Source: Leptolyngbyaceae cyanobacterium JSC-12
GTDB taxonomy: Bacteria > Cyanobacteriota > Cyanobacteriia > Leptolyngbyales > Leptolyngbyaceae
Assembly: GCA_000309945.1 (NCBI GenBank)
Contig: CM001633.1
Coordinates: 2,390,292 to 2,454,291, forward strand
Length of the DNA: 64,000 nt
Direction: 5' to 3'
Every line of letters begins with the position of its first letter. The first letter of the stretch is position 1. The notes under the pieces are model-generated. The model did not search any database. It was not told the DNA's origin and was given only the letters and a program-made list of their open reading frames with translations. Below are positions 6,116 through 62,792 of the stretch, in pieces. Both the position numbers and the translations under genes were made by a program.

Positions 6116-7318
6116 ATGAGTGCTGAGTTGCAAGAATCATCAGCCAATGACCAGGCATCTAGCAGTGGATTGGTTGGGATGGTGTTGGCAGTTCAGGCAA
6201 ATTTTTATTTGGTTCGATTGAGTGCTCATATTGAAGCCCCTGCACCTATTCACTCTTCTACCTTGTCTTCGCCATCATCCCCTGTTTCTACTGTCCCATC
6301 CTCCTCACTTCCTTTACCTTCTCTATCTCCCTACCCCTCAATCCCCCTGACTCTCCTTTGCACTCGTCGATCGCGCCTGAAGAAATTGGGGCAGCGGGTG
6401 ATGGTCGGCGATCGTGTGGAGATTGAGGAACCCGACTGGCAGGGAGGACGCGGGGCAATTGCCAGGATCTTACCGCGCACGTCAGAATTGGATCGACCGC
6501 CAGTGGCCAATGCCAATCAGGTGTTGTTGGTCTTTGCGTTAGCAGAACCAACTCTTGATCCCAATCAACTAACTCGTTTCTTGATTAAGGCAGAATCAAC
6601 TAGATTAAATGTTTGCTTGTGTTTGAGCAAACGTGATTTAGTCTCGCAGGCGGAGCAAGATCGCTGGCAACAACGGCTGCACCAATGGGGGTATGAACCA
6701 ATTTTTATCAGCACTCACAAGCAGCAAGGAATCGAGAGATTACTTGAGCAGTTGCGCGATCGCATTACGATAGTTTCAGGTCCGTCTGGAGTTGGTAAAT
6801 CGAGCCTGATTAACTATCTGGTTCCCCAGGCAAACCTTCGGGTGGCAAAAGTTTCAGGCAAGTTAGCAAGAGGTCGTCACACCACGCGCCATGTTGAGTT
6901 GTTTGAGTTGCCCGCAGGGGGCTTGCTGGCAGATACACCAGGGTTCAACCAGCCAGAATTAAACTGTAGCCCAGAGGCACTTGCCAGCTATTTCCCTGAG
7001 GTGCAACATCGGCTAGTACAGACATTTTGTCAGTTCAGCAATTGTCTACACCGCAACGAGCCAGGCTGCGTGGTGCGGGGAGATTGGGAGCGATACGATT
7101 CTTATTTGATGTTGCTAGAAGAAGCGATCGCGCGGCAAACGGCTTTAGAGCAAACCCGCACTGAAGAATCTACACTGAAAGTGAAAACCCGCCGTCAGGG
7201 ACGGGAAACCTATGAACCAAAGCTAGAACTCAAGAAATATCGTCGTTTGTCACGCCGCACTCAGCAGCAAGAACTTCTGGAGTTGCAGTATGAGGAGGAA
7301 GCCTCCATTGAGGAATAA
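6116..7318 (+). CDS. rsgA: RsgA, circularly permuted GTPase for 30S subunit maturation
   Basis: Late 30S ribosome assembly GTPase. The 400-residue protein has an N-terminal OB fold, then the permuted G-motif order: G4 SKRD, G1 GPSGVGKSS, G3 DTPG, and a C-terminal zinc-binding domain (Cys-x4-Cys-x-His-x5-Cys: CQFSNCLHRNEPGC). A Pro/Ser-rich stretch (residues about 40-80, bases about 6235-6355) interrupts the OB fold between two conserved strands; it is encoded by a pyrimidine-rich tract and is much longer than in relatives I recall. The start ATG at 6116 lies inside a short direct repeat shared with the end of the upstream gene, four bases after its stop. Convergent with the next gene. Confidence 0.95.
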   Translation: MSAELQESSANDQASSSGLVGMVLAVQANFYLVRLSAHIEAPAPIHSSTLSSPSSPVSTVPSSSLPLPSLSPYPSIPLTLLCTRRSRLKKLGQRVMVGDRVEIEEPDWQGGRGAIARILPRTSELDRPPVANANQVLLVFALAEPTLDPNQLTRFLIKAESTRLNVCLCLSKRDLVSQAEQDRWQQRLHQWGYEPIFISTHKQQGIERLLEQLRDRITIVSGPSGVGKSSLINYLVPQANLRVAKVSGKLARGRHTTRHVELFELPAGGLLADTPGFNQPELNCSPEALASYFPEVQHRLVQTFCQFSNCLHRNEPGCVVRGDWERYDSYLMLLEEAIARQTALEQTRTEESTLKVKTRRQGRETYEPKLELKKYRRLSRRTQQQELLELQYEEEASIEE

Positions 7319-7320
7319 TG

Positions 7321-7824
7321 CTACCCTTTCAGGGTGACTGTTGCCTCAGCGATTGTCCAGAGATATAGCGTGGCAACTTCTCCAGCCTCAATAGGAATTT
7401 TTATTTTGTGCTCTGGCTGCCAATCGCCCATATCAAAATCGTGAGAAATCACGCGAGTACCAGGTTTAAGTTGTTCCCACAGACGAGGACGCAGTTTGAG
7501 ATTAAGGTGAGGCAGGAGATAAAGAATCAGAACTGTTGCATCACCAAATTGACTTTCATATAAATCTTGCTGGTAAAAGGTAAGCAGATGGTGCACTCCA
7601 GCCTGATGAGCAGACTGGGTAGCTTCGTGAACGCGATCGCGATCAATATCAATTCCTACGCCGCGGATACCAAACCGTTGGGCTGCTGCAATCAAAATCC
7701 GCCCATCACCGCAACCCAAATCATATACAAGGTCATTTGGGTCAAGTTTTGCCAGTTGCAGTATCCCCTCCACGACTTCTGGAGGAGTGGGCAAAAAACC
7801 AATATCAGGTCTGCGGTCAGGCAT
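7321..7824 (-). CDS. Class I SAM-dependent methyltransferase
   Basis: 167-residue Rossmann-fold methyltransferase. Motif I is DLGCGDGRI (about 35-43), with the acidic residue ending strand 2 in GIDIDRDRV and a proline-rich LLPHLNLKLR segment in the later part. The beginning DIGFLPTPPEVVEGIL resembles small bacterial methyltransferases related to lysine methyltransferases acting on ribosomal or electron-transfer proteins, but the substrate cannot be read from sequence. It ends two bases after the rsgA stop in convergent orientation. The spacer to the divergent TIR gene is about 210 bases and has a HIP1 site close to the start codon. Confidence 0.8.
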   Translation of the reverse strand: MPDRRPDIGFLPTPPEVVEGILQLAKLDPNDLVYDLGCGDGRILIAAAQRFGIRGVGIDIDRDRVHEATQSAHQAGVHHLLTFYQQDLYESQFGDATVLILYLLPHLNLKLRPRLWEQLKPGTRVISHDFDMGDWQPEHKIKIPIEAGEVATLYLWTIAEATVTLKG

Positions 7825-8035
7825 GGAATAAAGGCGATCGCGTGCATAAGAATCAGCCCTTCATTGTAAAGCTTCAGCAAATATCCTTTGGCTCTCTAAT
7901 AAAAATTCCGTATGATTCAGAAACAGTTCAACTCCTGATTGGGGCACTAGATTTGAGCAACCTCTCTCCAGTCTCCTCAGAGTTGTGCTTGCTTACCTGC
8001 GTTTGGATTGTCACACCTTTACTGCACCTACCACT

Positions 8036-11000
8036 ATGAACCGCTTTCAGGATGTCTTCATTTCCTACGGCAGGGCGGACAGTAAGTTTCTTGCCAAGAA
8101 ATTAAACGATCGCCTGATTGCCCAAGGGCTGGAAGTCTGGTTTGACTTTGAAGACATTCCGCTAGGCGTCAATTATCAGAAGCAAATAGACGATGGGATT
8201 GAAAAAGCAGACAATTTTCTGTTCATTATTTCTCCTCATGCTGTCAATTCGCCCTACTGCGCCTTAGAAGTTGAACGAGCGCTGAAGCAGAATAAACGGA
8301 TTATTCCTGTGCTGCACATTGAGCAGATTAGCCACGAAATTTGGCAACAGCGTTTTCCTCAGGGCACTGCTCAACAATGGGAGTCTTATCAGTCCCAGGG
8401 TAAGCATTCCAGCTTCCCCAACATGCATCCAGAGATCTGCAAAATTAATTGGGTCTACTGTCGGGAAGGAGTGGACGATTTTGAGCAATCGCTGCAAGAT
8501 CTGCTGGCAATTTTTGAGCGCGATCGCGTGTATGTTCGGCAGCACACTGCCTTCTTAGCAAAAGCATTGGAATGGCAGCATCACCACCACGAACCGCAGT
8601 ACCTCTTGATTAGAGAAGAACGACAACAAGCTGAAACCTGGCTCAAAACGCGCTTTCAGGACAGACAACCACCCTGTATTCCCACCGATCTGCACTGTGA
8701 ATTCATCACTGAAAGCACCAAAAATGCCAACAACCTGATGACCCAGGTGTTCATTTCCTGGGCAAGGGACGATCGCGCGTTGATGGAACAGTTCCGTCGC
8801 AGCCTATTGCGAGAAAACCTCACGGTTTGGGTTAGCAAAACGGATATTCAAACTGGAGCTGATTTTCAGCAGGAAATCAACCACGGCATTGAAGAAGCTG
8901 ATAACGTGGTTTACCTGATTTCTCCCGCTGCGCTCAAATCACCCGACTGCCAGCAAGAAATTCAATACGCCCTTAGTCTTAACAAACGCATCATTCCATT
9001 GCTGATTCGCTTTACCGATCTCAATCTCATTCCATCTGAACTTCGGAGTTTACACTTTATTAATTTTGCCGACAATACAACTCAAGCTCAACATGAGCGT
9101 GATGTTGCCAAATTAATCAAAATCCTGAACCAGGATGCTGGGTACTACGAAGAACACAAGATTTTACTCACCAAAGCACTGAAGTGGGATCGGCAGCATC
9201 GGAATCCCAGTATTTTGTTGCGAGGTTATAATCTGCGCCATGCCGAAGCCTGGCTAAAAGTTGCTCACCATCGAGAACAGCATCATCCGATTCCCTTAAT
9301 CGAAGAATTTATTCAGGAAAGTTTACGGCAGCCAGAGGGAGTGCCGCTGGATGTCTTTGTTTCATACTCTCGCAAAGATTCTGAATTTGCCCGTCGGCTC
9401 AACGATGCTTTGCAAATTCATGGAAAAACAACCTGGTTTGACCAGGAGAATATTGCGGCTGGTAGCCCTGATTTTCAGCAAGAAATCTACCGCGGAATTG
9501 AAAACAGCGACCACTTCTTATTTATCATTTCACCCAGTTCAATTGGTTCACCGTATTGCTTTGGCGAGGTAGATTATGCCACACGGCTGAACAAACGTAT
9601 AATCACGGTATTGGCTGAGTCAGTAAAGCTAGAGAGCTTGCCTCCTGCTTTAGCAACTGTGCAGTGGATTGATTTCAGTCGGCATGATAGTGCCTTCGAT
9701 GCCAGTTTCAGTACACTGCTTCGTACCTTGGACACAGATCCAGAGCATTTACGAACCCATACTCGCTTGTTGGTGAGAGCGTTGGAATGGGAAAATCGCG
9801 ATCGCGATGAAAGTTTGTTGTTGCGAGGCAGCAGTTTGAAGGAAATTCAACAATGGCTACTGGCAAGCCCCCACAAAAACCCACAGCCAACCCGCCTGCA
9901 ACGAGATTATGTAACCGCTTCCAACGCGACGGAGATCCAGCGACAACGAGCGACCTTACGCCTGCAACGGGTGGGCTTAGGTCTTATTAGTGTTGCATCC
10001 CTGGCAGCGATCGCCCTAGGATTAACTGCTTACCGACAATATCAGGCAGCCAATCGTTCTCGGATAGAGGCACAAAAAGAGCGCATCTGGGCACAAACCA
10101 GAACTTCTGAAGCGCTGTTTCGCTCTGAGCGTCCATTTGAAGCACTGCTAGAAGCCATGCATGCAGGCATTGAGTTCAAGCAATTTGGCATTGCTGATGA
10201 CAAACTCAAGTCAACCGTTGTCACAGCGTTGCAGCAAGCGGTGTTTTGGGTGCAAGAAAATCAGCGCATTGGTGCCCATGCTGGAATTATTTGGGATGTG
10301 GATACCAGCCCCGATACAAAATTCATTGCGTCAGCTAGTGACGATGGCTCCGTTAAAATCTGGAACCAGGACGGCACCTTAGTCAACCAAATCCGCAGTC
10401 AACAAAATGATGCCTTTATGGCAGTTGCCTTTTCTCCGAATCAGCAACTTTTAGCTGTGGGAGGTTCGAGCCGGAATGGCACACAAGGGCAAGCATTTCT
10501 GGTGCGGTTGGGTGATAAACAGCAGCGAATCCTATTGGGGCGGCAACTGGCTCCTGTAGTGGGGATCGCCTTTTCTCCGAATGGGCAAACGATCGCGACT
10601 GCCAGCGAAGACAGTATGGTGCGGTTGTGGAATGTGAACGGAAAACTGTTGAAAACTCTGGAAGGGCACAATGCCCCTGTGCGGTCAGTGACCTTTAGCC
10701 CCGATGGGCAACTGATTGCCACTGCCAGCGACGATCGCACGATTCGCTTGTGGAGCCAGAATGGCACTCCAATTAAAACCTTGATTGGTCATACGGCTCA
10801 GGTTCGTAGCGTCAGCTTTAGCCGCGATGGCAAACACCTGGTTTCTGCCAGTTGGGATGAAACTGTGCGTCTCTGGAACCGCGACGGCACTCCCATTCGG
10901 GCGATCGCTGGGCATGGTTCTCTGGTGAATGACGCTAAATTTAGCCAGGATGGCAAAACTATTGCCTCAGCAGGATGGGACAAAACTATCAAGTTATGGA

Positions 11001-27914: not shown

Positions 27915-28392
27915 ATGACTGTTACAAGACCTATATCTTTATAACTCTAGAGGATTTTCTGAAGTTACCAGAAACACAGCCTGCCAGTGAATATATTGAT
28001 GGGGAAGTCGTCCAAAAACTAATACCTCTGAAGTTACCAGAAACACAGCCTGCCAGTGAATATATTGATGGGGAAGTCGTCCAAAAACTAATACCAAAGA
28101 CTCGTCATTCAAGACTTCGAGGTAAGTTAATTAATGTGATTAATGAAGTCTCATAGAGGCGAGGCAGATTGCTTATGCTTTTCGAGTTACGGGCAATATT
28201 TTGCACTGTCTAAAGCACGGTTGTCAGCTTGGTTGGTTAGTTGATCCGGACGATCGCTCAGTGATAATCTTTCAGCCGCAACAACAACCAGAGCTATTTC
28301 ATCGAGATGATCGGTTGGTTGTTTTGGAAGGAATTGAGTTAAATCTGACAGCAAAGCAAGTGTTTAGCTGGTTAAAAATGCAAGCTGAGTGA
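27915..28392 (+). pseudogene. Uma2-family (DUF820) endonuclease gene, decayed
   Basis: Uma2 proteins are PD-(D/E)xK nuclease-fold proteins very abundant in cyanobacteria, role unknown. Fragments are read in several frames. MTVTRPISL starts at 27915, then a two-base insertion (TA) breaks the frame before TLEDFLKLPETQPASEYIDGEVV. A 69-base unit is exactly duplicated in tandem (27958-28026 and 28027-28095). Then KTRHSRLRGKLINVINEVS ends at a stop made by another two-base insertion, followed by EARQIAYAF. A deletion of roughly 75-80 codons joins this to GNILHCLKHGCQLGWLVDPDDR..QVFSWLK, the normal C-terminus. The catalytic centre is lost. Confidence 0.85.
27958..28095. repeat. 69-base exact tandem duplication inside the Uma2 pseudogene
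   Basis: Two adjacent identical 69-base copies (27958-28026, 28027-28095), each encoding the 23 residues LKLPETQPASEY..QKLIP in the same frame. Exact identity means the duplication is recent or maintained. Confidence 0.95.
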
Positions 28393-57498: not shown

Positions 57499-57688
57499 CT
57501 CAACCCTTCGTTACAGCATGTGCGATCGCTAGCGGAGGAGCGATCAGAAGATTCGGCTGTGGCTAACTTCAACGTATTCGCTATTTTGCAAGATATTGCT
57601 TTGAATTGCCCTTGCTGGAAACTCCATAGCACCCAGCGGTACGTACTGCCCCGGTAGAACGCTGATTTGCTAGAGTGCCAGGTATACC

Positions 57689-57730
57689 TATGAATGTATG
57701 AATGTATGAATGCGAATGTATGAATGTCGC
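57689..57730. repeat. TATGAATG short tandem repeats
   Basis: TATGAATG is repeated three times in succession and again after a short gap (TATGAATGTATGAATG...GCGAATGTATGAATG). Lies downstream of DUF1825 gene's end, in a gene-free spacer. Confidence 0.9.
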
Positions 57731-60006: not shown

Positions 60007-60531
60007 ATGTCCCTCTTCAACTGGTTCACCAAAGCCGCTCAGTCGCAAACCATTAAGTCGCGCATTTTGCACGACCCATACTATCGCTTTCAATCAGTTG
60101 AAGAACTGCAATTGGCTGCCAGCTTCGGCGTTCGGATCGATGTTAATCGGGCAGGGGTTGATGATTGGTTACGGCTCCCTGGTCTTTCTATTCATCAAGC
60201 GCGCACGCTCACAGAGTTAACTCAAGCAGGTATACAGCTACATTCGCTAGAAGACATTGCTGCTGCGTTAAATCTGCCTGCTCAACGGCTCAACCCTTTA
60301 GCACCTGTGTTGCAATTTTGCTACTACGACGAAAACAGCCTGCATACGATTCAGCCAGTCGATGTTAACGTTGCTTCAGTTGAGACCCTTGCCCGCATTC
60401 CCCCTGTCGATCTGTATCTGGCACGGTTGATAGTGCAGAATCGCCCTTATCGCAACCTACCTCATTTGCAACGCAAACTCTCATTATCTAGCGAATTGAC
60501 TGCACAACTTCTGCACTACCTGAAATTTTAG
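60007..60531 (+). CDS. Helix-hairpin-helix (ComEA-like) protein
   Basis: 174 residues with two HhH units (IDVNRAGVDDWLRLPGLSIHQARTL and VDVNVASVETLARIPPVDLYLARLIV). HhH pairs bind DNA non-specifically in ComEA. No signal peptide or membrane anchor is evident, unlike ComEA itself, so cytoplasmic action is likelier. Overlaps the convergent selD fusion by four bases. Confidence 0.85.
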   Translation: MSLFNWFTKAAQSQTIKSRILHDPYYRFQSVEELQLAASFGVRIDVNRAGVDDWLRLPGLSIHQARTLTELTQAGIQLHSLEDIAAALNLPAQRLNPLAPVLQFCYYDENSLHTIQPVDVNVASVETLARIPPVDLYLARLIVQNRPYRNLPHLQRKLSLSSELTAQLLHYLKF

Positions 60532-62792
60532 GCAGGTGTGTCGAATTGAATTGAGATAGGAGGGTTTTGGTGTTGCCAGGGAACCGTCTGTCCGATGATT
60601 GCACTATCGGTGTATCCCAAGTGCTTTAAATGTTGTAAACAGGAGATCGCCCGCTCCAACGGAACCGCAGCCAGTAACCCACCCGAAGTTTGCGGATCAA
60701 ATAGCAGTTGAAATTTGGGATGCTGGATCACACTGTCTAGATTTTGAATAAACTGAGATCCTTCCAGGTTTTTGGGGGGTAAAGAACTCAGAATGCCCAT
60801 CGCCATAGTTTCTAAAGCACCTGGCAAAATGGGAATCGCCTCTAAATTCAGATTTACGGCAACACTAGAGGCTCGAATCATTTCCAGCAGATGCCCTACT
60901 AATCCAAAGCCTGCGATATCGGTACAGGCAACGGCTTGCTGTTGTAAAAAACAGAATGCTGCCTGCTGGTTGGATTGCAGCATAGACCTTACAGCCAAAT
61001 CAATCCAGCGTCCCAAAGCTTTTCGTTGCATTTTGGCAGCAAAAAGAGTGCCAGTGCCTAACGGCTTTGTCAGAATCAAGGCGTGCTCAGGTTGTAATTC
61101 GTTCTTGCGTAATAGAGTGTTTGCATCTGCCAGACCGTTACAAGATAACCCAAACGCCAGCATTGCCCCTTCTGTCATGTGTCCACCAATTAACACGGCT
61201 CCTGCTTCGTGCAAAACTTTGACGGTTCCAGACAATAGTTGATACAAACTTTCTTCCACCTTCGCTGCGGTGCCAAAAGGAACGGTTGCTATCGCCAGGG
61301 CGCTCTGTGGCATTGCTCCCACGGCATATAAATCGTTCAACGCCTGGTTTGCACTAATTTGCCCAAACACAAATGGGTCATCCAGCAAGGCAGTGAAATA
61401 ATCAACGGCTTGTACCAGCACCTTGCCAGGAGGGATCTGTACTATCGCCGCAGCATCGGGCGTGTTCAATCCCAGCAGAATTTCAGTAGTAGAGGGATAA
61501 GGAACAGCCTGGATGCGTTGTAGAACACGAAACAGGATAGAACTATCAACTTTACTGGGAATGGGGGATGGAGGAGAGGGGGGGATGGGGATGTGGGGGG
61601 ATGGGGAGAGGGAGAGGTGGGAAGATATTTGGGGCGGATGATTTAGCCGTCGTATGAAGCGCTGGTCGATGTAGTTTTTCCATTGCCAAAGGAGGGGCGA
61701 TCGCCAACCCCAGGCTCCCCTGGCAGCAACAGCTTTTCCATCAGCAGTGTTCAGTAGACTGAGATAATGCGTTTGCGGATGAAAGGGTTTCAGTGGTTGA
61801 TTTTGCAGAAAGCGCCGCAGGTTGTGAAACAGAGGTTTTCCCTGCCGCACTGCGAATACTCCTGCTTTGGGGCGGGGGTGGTTAGCCATTGTGGCAATGT
61901 CACCCGTTGCAAACACAAATGGATAGTTGAGGGATTGCAGCATGTCGTTGACTAATACAAACCCTTTTTCATCAGTTGCCAGCCCAGTTTTACGTAACCA
62001 ATCCGGAGCAGCGGCTTGAGTCACCCAAATAATTGCATCACACTCTAGTTCAAACCCTGATTGACAGCGAATGAAGCGTGATTCTACCGTCTGAACTTCT
62101 TGATTCAAATGGAGATGAATATGACGCTGGATTAACAGCGATCGCAGGCAGTTTCGCACCCAGGCATTGAACTGGGGTACCAGTTGCGATCCCCGATGAA
62201 TCAGATGTATCTCCAGATTAGTCGAAGGTTGGTTGGCTGCTTGCAGAATCTTTTGGATGCGGTGATGCATTGTGAAGCAGAGTTCAACTCCGGCTGCCCC
62301 ACCTCCCACAATGCCTAACCGAATTGGCTGTTCAGGATGGCAGGAAATTTGCTTAATCAGGTCATCCCAGCGATCAAGGAAAACACGAGTCGGTTTTGCA
62401 GGAATGACACTTTCGACATCCGCTAATCCTACTGGCAGCAGAGGCGTGCTCCCAATATCAAGAGACAGCACATCAAACGCAACAGGTGGATGTTGGGCAC
62501 AAATGACTTGTTTATGTTCCAAATCCAGACTGATCGCCTGATCTACATAAAGCTGCGCTCCAGCAAAATCTGCTAAAGCGCATAAGTTAATGTGGCATGT
62601 TTCATCCGAGTAGAAACCTGCTACACGTCCCGGTAACATCCCGGAATATGCACTTTCGAAAGCCTCGGAAATCAGAGTAAGACGAATCCCTGGTAGGGGT
62701 TTCATCCCGAACATTCGGAGCACAATCGCATGGGCATGCCCCCCACCCACCAACACCAAATCTTGAGTGACTGGCTCAACAGTGAATCTCAT
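60528..62792 (-). CDS. selD: NDH2-like oxidoreductase fused to SelD (selenophosphate synthetase), Cys motif lost
   Basis: 754 residues. N-terminal part (about 1-385) is an FAD-dependent pyridine nucleotide oxidoreductase (VLVGGGHAHAIVLR, GIVGGGAAGVELCF, FATGDIATMA). The C-terminal part (about 416-754) is SelD: VDYFTALLDDPFVFGQISANQALNDLYAVGA, IGGHMTEGAMLAFGLSCNG, TKPLGTGTLFAA, and FDPQTSGGLL. This fusion is known in cyanobacteria. In usual forms the SelD domain starts with a Cys-Gly-x-Lys motif (selenide-binding Cys); here the position reads PIPSKVDSS after a Ser/Pro low-complexity run (about 390-412), so the Cys is gone while the Lys remains. The run is encoded by a purine-rich tract at 61556-61622. 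Confidence 0.92.
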   Translation of the reverse strand: MRFTVEPVTQDLVLVGGGHAHAIVLRMFGMKPLPGIRLTLISEAFESAYSGMLPGRVAGFYSDETCHINLCALADFAGAQLYVDQAISLDLEHKQVICAQHPPVAFDVLSLDIGSTPLLPVGLADVESVIPAKPTRVFLDRWDDLIKQISCHPEQPIRLGIVGGGAAGVELCFTMHHRIQKILQAANQPSTNLEIHLIHRGSQLVPQFNAWVRNCLRSLLIQRHIHLHLNQEVQTVESRFIRCQSGFELECDAIIWVTQAAAPDWLRKTGLATDEKGFVLVNDMLQSLNYPFVFATGDIATMANHPRPKAGVFAVRQGKPLFHNLRRFLQNQPLKPFHPQTHYLSLLNTADGKAVAARGAWGWRSPLLWQWKNYIDQRFIRRLNHPPQISSHLSLSPSPHIPIPPSPPSPIPSKVDSSILFRVLQRIQAVPYPSTTEILLGLNTPDAAAIVQIPPGKVLVQAVDYFTALLDDPFVFGQISANQALNDLYAVGAMPQSALAIATVPFGTAAKVEESLYQLLSGTVKVLHEAGAVLIGGHMTEGAMLAFGLSCNGLADANTLLRKNELQPEHALILTKPLGTGTLFAAKMQRKALGRWIDLAVRSMLQSNQQAAFCFLQQQAVACTDIAGFGLVGHLLEMIRASSVAVNLNLEAIPILPGALETMAMGILSSLPPKNLEGSQFIQNLDSVIQHPKFQLLFDPQTSGGLLAAVPLERAISCLQHLKHLGYTDSAIIGQTVPWQHQNPPISIQFDTPA
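61556..61622. repeat. Purine-rich low-complexity tract inside the selD fusion gene
   Basis: Almost only G and A on the plus strand, rich in GGGGATG/TGGGGAG units. The 14-mer TGGGGATGTGGGGG is also present at about 18960-18973 between two genes. It encodes the Ser/Pro run at the SelD entry. Confidence 0.85.

What the first reader, a model, noticed from the sequence alone, without database searches (positions are those of the whole stretch)
61530..61640. SelD domain without its catalytic Cys: motif replaced by a Ser/Pro insert
In the usual fusion, SelD starts with a Cys-Gly-x-Lys type segment. Here PIPSKVDSSILFRVLQRI stands in its place after a Ser/Pro run; the Lys and what follows are kept. 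The lost Cys binds selenide in E. coli SelD (Cys17). So either selenophosphate synthesis is dead, or another Cys serves, or the enzyme has a changed function. The insert is made by a purine-rich tract, which offers a mechanism for the loss.
Basis: partly seen in the sequence, partly recalled or inferred. Interest (0 to 1): 0.6.

Follow-up and report, generated by a model that had tools for sequence, protein, structure and literature searches.

The report
Dead selenium-enzyme domain in cyanobacterial fusion
A cyanobacterium that has lost the gene that uses activated selenium to modify tRNA still carries the gene that would make that activated selenium, but the selenium half of that gene has lost its catalytic cysteine and a metal-binding residue, so it is almost certainly a decaying relic attached to a still-conserved oxidoreductase.

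Summary
In the 754-aa NDH2-like/SelD fusion (60528-62792, minus), the CxGC(G/A)xK motif kept by 25 of 25 aligned fused relatives is missing; only the Lys (K414) remains, behind a Ser/Pro run. Against the closest congener this reads most simply as a 15-nt in-frame loss of Cys-Ala-Gly-Cys-Gly at the edge of a Ser/Pro tract that the congener also has, in shorter form. The tract did not cause the loss by itself.

The 'dead' option is best supported. The domain also lost the E. coli Asp51 equivalent (D447A) and five other otherwise invariant residues, while the NDH half departs at 0 of 75. The complete genome has no second selD, no mnmH, no SelA, SelB or YqeB, and no tRNA-Sec above cut-off. mnmH was excised 3 kb away, inside this window (57509-57547), where the congener has it. 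Of 149 cyanobacterial SelD sequences inspected, the two without the Cys motif (this one and G288) are two of only three from genomes without mnmH.

Selection on the domain is only mildly relaxed and there is no frameshift, so the loss is recent or the domain still serves structurally. A co-opted pseudoenzyme is not excluded. It is a relic of a lost selenium trait, not a new system.

The parts
60528..62792 (-). NDH2-like oxidoreductase / SelD fusion gene, 754 aa, open reading frame intact
61647..62762 (-). oxidoreductase domain (TIGR03169, residues 11-382); 0 departures at 75 columns invariant in 25 relatives
60654..61556 (-). degenerating SelD domain (TIGR00476, residues 413-713)
61554..61613 (-). 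Ser/Pro run (residues 394-413) encoded by a G-rich purine tract on the + strand; tandem repeat of about 16 bp, 3.1 copies at 61563-61612
61556..61557 (-). inferred junction (between P412 and S413) where Cys-Ala-Gly-Cys-Gly (15 nt) is missing relative to congener G002
61551..61553 (-). Lys414, equivalent of E. coli SelD Lys20, retained
61452..61454 (-). Ala447 in place of an Asp found in all 25 aligned relatives (E. coli Asp51, a metal ligand)
61344..61346 (-). Gln483 in place of the otherwise invariant His at the position aligned to E. coli Asn87
57509..57547 (.). deletion scar: site where the congener carries mnmH (selU/ybbB); the whole gene except its last few bases is absent here
57548..57688 (-). 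remnant of the Uma2-type gene that lies next to mnmH in the congener (two pieces, 57548-57629 and 57634-57688)

Best explanation
The SelD half of this fusion is a decaying, catalytically dead relic of a lost selenium trait. The ancestor made selenophosphate with the fused SelD and used it through MnmH to put selenium into tRNA (2-selenouridine). In this lineage mnmH was deleted (scar at 57509-57547) and no other consumer of selenophosphate was found. Released from selection, the SelD half lost its Cys motif through an in-frame deletion/expansion at the G-rich linker tract and acquired other active-site changes (D447A and others). The reading frame persists because the N-terminal oxidoreductase is still under selection and works without SelD, as in relatives that carry it alone. 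Shown: loss of Cys and Asp51 equivalents, mnmH deletion, absence of other selenium genes, unequal conservation of the two halves, co-occurrence pattern. Inferred: loss of enzymatic activity, order of events, replication slippage as the mechanism, independent function of the oxidoreductase.
For: 25/25 aligned fused relatives keep the Cys motif. Besides the motif, six columns invariant in all others are changed in this SelD half (D447A, T462A, H483Q, M491V, G565E, G569E), the highest count of 26 genomes, against 0/75 in the NDH half; D447 aligns to E. coli Asp51. The metal-binding Asp residues and the Cys-x-x-Lys motif are described as essential (PMC4210487) and C17S is catalytically inactive (PMC3956282). 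mnmH: none in the complete 5.53-Mb genome, present in the congener; the congener's mnmH lies in a block syntenic with this window, and the window lacks exactly that piece but keeps remnants of the neighbouring gene. No second selD, SelB, YqeB or SelA, and no tRNA-Sec over the gathering score. In 291 cyanobacterial genomes 157 have both SelD and mnmH and only 3 have SelD without mnmH; of 149 SelD sequences inspected only 2 lack the motif, both from those 3 (Fisher about 3e-4, ignoring phylogeny). SelD branch omega 0.19 against background 0.10 (2dlnL 3.2), NDH not raised. Relatives carry the NDH domain alone, including the congener G001, where SelD is gone.
Against: The SelD half has no stop or frameshift, and neutral evolution along its whole branch is rejected (omega = 1: 2dlnL 8.1), so either the loss is recent or some constraint remains. 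The rise in omega is not significant at 5%. Lys20, Asp68, Asp91 and Asp227 equivalents are kept. No activity was measured.
Confidence: 0.83

Rival explanations
1. Co-opted pseudoenzyme: the SelD half no longer makes selenophosphate but is kept as a structural, dimerising, ATP-binding or regulatory module for the fused oxidoreductase, in the way that animal SPS1 proteins lack Sec/Cys yet are kept.
For: Frame intact; omega on the branch 0.19, well below 1; other active-site Asp and Lys residues kept; additional SPS genes that are neither selenoproteins nor Cys homologues exist in animals (PMC4561486).
Against: Changes hit residues otherwise invariant, including a metal ligand and two Gly-to-Glu in one loop. 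Relatives with no SelD at all keep the oxidoreductase, so it does not need the module. The other Cys-less case, G288, has a far more degraded SelD half, as expected for decay. No long-lived Cys-less clade was found.
Confidence: 0.12
2. Still an active selenophosphate synthetase, with another Cys taking the role of Cys17.
For: SelD-half Cys at 551, 614, 623 and 718 exist; Cys623 lies two residues from the Asp227 equivalent.
Against: Those Cys are at positions where most or all relatives also have Cys in addition to the catalytic one, and E. coli C17S is inactive (PMC3956282). The Asp51 equivalent is also lost and no selenophosphate user was found in the genome.
Confidence: 0.03
3. Sequencing or assembly error in the G-rich tract hides the motif.
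For: The tract has long G runs that some platforms misread (own knowledge; one search shows the runs).
Against: The genome is one contig with 100% estimated completeness. The frame is intact on both sides, no frame encodes the motif, and loss of 15 nt in frame is not a typical homopolymer error. D447A and the mnmH deletion lie outside the tract and tell the same story.
Confidence: 0.02

Closest known systems
Cyanobacterial NADH-oxidoreductase-like/SelD fusion (COG1252-COG0709; TIGR03169 + TIGR00476)
   Same: Same domain order, length and sequence (up to 73% identity to the congener), same family of organisms.
   Different: Lacks the Cys motif and the Asp51 equivalent, and the genome lacks mnmH.
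Orphan SelD (PMC5029168, PMC2432076)
   Same: SelD-family domain in a genome without the known selenium-use genes searched for.
   Different: Published orphan SelDs are discussed as possible markers of an unknown selenium trait, with pseudogenes not excluded; this one is visibly damaged in its active site with an mnmH deletion scar nearby.
NCBIfam TIGR04369 'fusion_not_SelD'
   Same: Same fusion architecture; the name denotes a SelD-like half taken not to be SelD.
   Different: 428.7 bits against a cut-off of 700. True members (picocyanobacteria, 955-1032 bits) keep CRGC(A)xK and are in genomes with mnmH, so this protein is not one.
SPS1-type Cys/Sec-less selenophosphate synthetase paralogues of animals
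   Same: SelD homologue without Sec/Cys at the catalytic position.
   Different: SPS1 proteins arose by duplication of SPS2 (PMC4561486); here the only SelD copy is damaged and there is no working one.

Membership tests
SelD (selenide, water dikinase, TIGR00476) | Profile score over curated cut-off | tested here: met
   251.8 bits against 125, the lowest score among the family-f1 fusions
SelD (selenide, water dikinase, TIGR00476) | Catalytic Cys/Sec of Cys/Sec-x-x-Lys | tested here: not met
   SPIPSK in place of CAGCGSK; only Lys kept
SelD (selenide, water dikinase, TIGR00476) | Four metal-binding Asp (E. coli 51, 68, 91, 227) | tested here: not met
   Asp51 equivalent is Ala447; Asp464, 487 and 625 kept. 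Residue numbers are from own knowledge of E. coli SelD; the role is described in PMC4210487
SelD (selenide, water dikinase, TIGR00476) | Genome has a user of selenophosphate (mnmH, selA/selB, yqeB) | tested here: not met
SelD (selenide, water dikinase, TIGR00476) | Makes selenophosphate | not testable with these tools
   needs an enzyme assay
TIGR03169 oxidoreductase fused to SelD | Profile over cut-off, N-terminal position | tested here: met
   477.8 bits against 310, residues 11-382
TIGR04369 fusion_not_SelD | Score over 700 bits | tested here: not met
   428.7 bits
Decayed relic of a lost trait | Partner gene of the pathway lost in the same genome | tested here: met
   mnmH absent genome-wide and deleted at its syntenic site
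Decayed relic of a lost trait | Relaxed selection on the domain | tested here: inconclusive
   omega 0.19 against 0.10, 2dlnL 3.2; omega = 1 rejected

The most novel reading that the evidence does not exclude
The Cys-less SelD half has become a pseudoenzyme that serves the fused oxidoreductase (ATP or metal sensing, dimerisation or localisation), a change of function that followed loss of selenium use and happened more than once in cyanobacteria.
Probability: 0.1. Interest if true: 0.55.

Novelty: new member of a known kind. Interest (0 to 1): 0.36.

Why it matters
It shows selenium-trait loss caught midway. Within one genus there is an intact state (G002: Cys motif and mnmH), a damaged state (this genome: SelD in frame but without Cys, mnmH excised) and a state with the SelD domain gone (G001, incomplete assembly). 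It warns that a SelD profile hit over cut-off is not proof of selenium use: annotation should check the Cys motif and mnmH. It also suggests that the fused oxidoreductase, proposed to feed SelD a reduced selenium compound (PMC2432076), has a role independent of selenium.

Tried and rejected
Frame error in the G-rich tract: no frame encodes the motif. A second selD elsewhere: the only other match is a weak one in a 363-aa ORF, most likely ThiL. Selenocysteine route: best SelB hit is under cut-off in a 417-aa ORF, most likely EF-Tu; no SelA; tRNA-Sec hits all under gathering score and probably ordinary long-arm tRNAs. Selenium-cofactor route: no YqeB (YqeC not searched). TIGR04369 membership: score far under cut-off. 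Structure prediction was not run because it would not separate the rivals.

Full report
What is there. The minus-strand ORF 60528-62792 encodes 754 aa: an NDH2-like oxidoreductase domain (TIGR03169, residues 11-382) followed by a SelD domain (TIGR00476, residues 413-713, 251.8 bits, cut-off 125). Between them lies a Ser/Pro run encoded by a purine-rich, G-rich + strand tract (TRF: 16-bp unit, 3.1 copies, 61563-61612). The protein reads ...SPSPHIPIPPSPPSPIPSKVDSSILFRVL.

Is the Cys motif lost? Yes. All 25 aligned fused relatives have CxGC(G/A)xK at this point; this protein alone does not. The closest congener (G002, 73% identical) has ...PSPPPLSPMP-CAGCG-SKVGSN. The simplest reading is loss of five codons (15 nt) between Pro412 and Ser413, plus about nine codons of growth in a Ser/Pro tract that the congener also has in shorter form. 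The alignment in a repeat is not unique, so the exact breakpoint is inferred. Other relatives carry Ser/Pro-rich linkers with the motif intact. The tract type is dispersed in this genome: 75 matches to a GGGGATGKGGRGRNGGGG pattern (up to two mismatches) against 18 for the reversed control, some of them overlapping hits in single tracts.

Is the rest of the SelD half sound? No. Counting columns invariant in all other 25 sequences, it departs at six of 71 (D447A, T462A, H483Q, M491V, G565E, G569E), the most of any of the 26 genomes, not counting the motif columns; the NDH half departs at 0 of 75. In the alignment to E. coli SelD (3u0o), residue 447 matches Asp51 and residue 483 matches Asn87, where the fused relatives have His. 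The metal-binding Asp residues, Asn87 and Cys-x-x-Lys are described as essential (PMC4210487), and the E. coli C17S mutant is catalytically inactive (PMC3956282). Lys414, Asp464, Asp487 and Asp625 are kept.

Selection. On a nine-taxon tree the protein branch to this genome is longer than its sister branch in the SelD half (0.294 against 0.219) but hardly in the NDH half (0.142 against 0.135). A codon model written for this task gives omega 0.193 on the SelD branch against 0.100 elsewhere (2dlnL 3.2, about p = 0.07), omega = 1 rejected (2dlnL 8.1), and no rise in the NDH half (0.136 against 0.124). This fits decay over a short, late part of the branch, or partial constraint; it does not separate them.

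Genome context. The genome is one contig of 5.53 Mb. It has no other SelD, no mnmH, no SelA, no SelB over cut-off, no YqeB and no tRNA-Sec over the gathering score. The congener G002 has mnmH, at L156 5558-6676. That region is syntenic with this window: window 56546-57508 matches L156 4603-5566; 57548-57629 matches 6767-6849 and 57634-57688 matches 7240-7294, both inside the neighbouring Uma2-type gene; 57720-59278 matches 7295-8851; 59384-60531 matches 8853-9973. All of mnmH except its last few bases is missing at 57509-57547, about 3 kb from the fusion gene, and the neighbouring gene is left as fragments, which supports a deletion here rather than an insertion in the congener.

Comparative test. 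In 58 relatives SelD and mnmH nearly always go together. In 291 genomes of the class (completeness at least 90%), 160 have SelD and 161 have mnmH; only three have SelD without mnmH (G000, G288, G290) and four have mnmH without SelD (G010, G071, G172, G237). I inspected the motif in 149 of the 160: it is missing in two, this genome and G288; L245 was missed by the regular expression but has CAGCGSKA. G288 (L161) keeps a strong oxidoreductase domain (528.8 bits) and a badly damaged SelD half. G290 keeps the motif, but its assembly is in about 590 contigs. Fisher's exact test gives about 3e-4, ignoring phylogeny. The eleven uninspected sequences belong to family f2 (picocyanobacteria).

The oxidoreductase without SelD. 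Several relatives carry the domain alone (G007, G013, G024 and others). In the same genus, G001 has the domain ending in a stop where the SelD half would begin, with a carbonic-anhydrase-like ORF downstream, and no mnmH was found (84% complete). G001 branches outside G000 and G002, so its loss appears independent.

Conclusion. The best explanation is a recently dead SelD half, left attached to a conserved oxidoreductase after mnmH was deleted. The order of the two losses is not known. Co-option as a pseudoenzyme is the main rival (0.12); rescue by another Cys and sequencing error are unlikely. The kind of thing is known (trait loss and orphan SelD), so novelty is limited; the value lies in the clear, mutually supporting evidence within one window and in the caution for annotation.

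Noticed in passing
L167, L168, L170 (picocyanobacterial genomes G202, G173, G059): Members of NCBIfam 'fusion_not_SelD' (TIGR04369, 955-1032 bits) keep the CRGC(A)xK motif and their genomes have mnmH, so the family name may be misleading and these may be working SelDs.
   Followed up: partly
L161:1043-3250 (G288): Second Cys-less fusion in a genome without mnmH: strong oxidoreductase domain, SelD half lacking the Cys motif, the DDAA segment and the TDxTGFG motif.
   Followed up: partly
L164 (G136:C4:933500-938500): Fusion gene cut short, with another SelD-like piece on the opposite strand nearby, suggesting a rearranged or inverted copy, in a genome that still has mnmH.
   Followed up: no
window 57689-57727: Short tandem repeat (TATGAATG) at the edge of the mnmH deletion scar; absent from the matched stretch of the congener.
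   Followed up: no
window 27958-28095: 69-bp unit repeated twice, identical copies.
   Followed up: no
G010, G071, G172, G237: mnmH present but no SelD found; could be incomplete assemblies or MnmH used only for geranylation.
   Followed up: no
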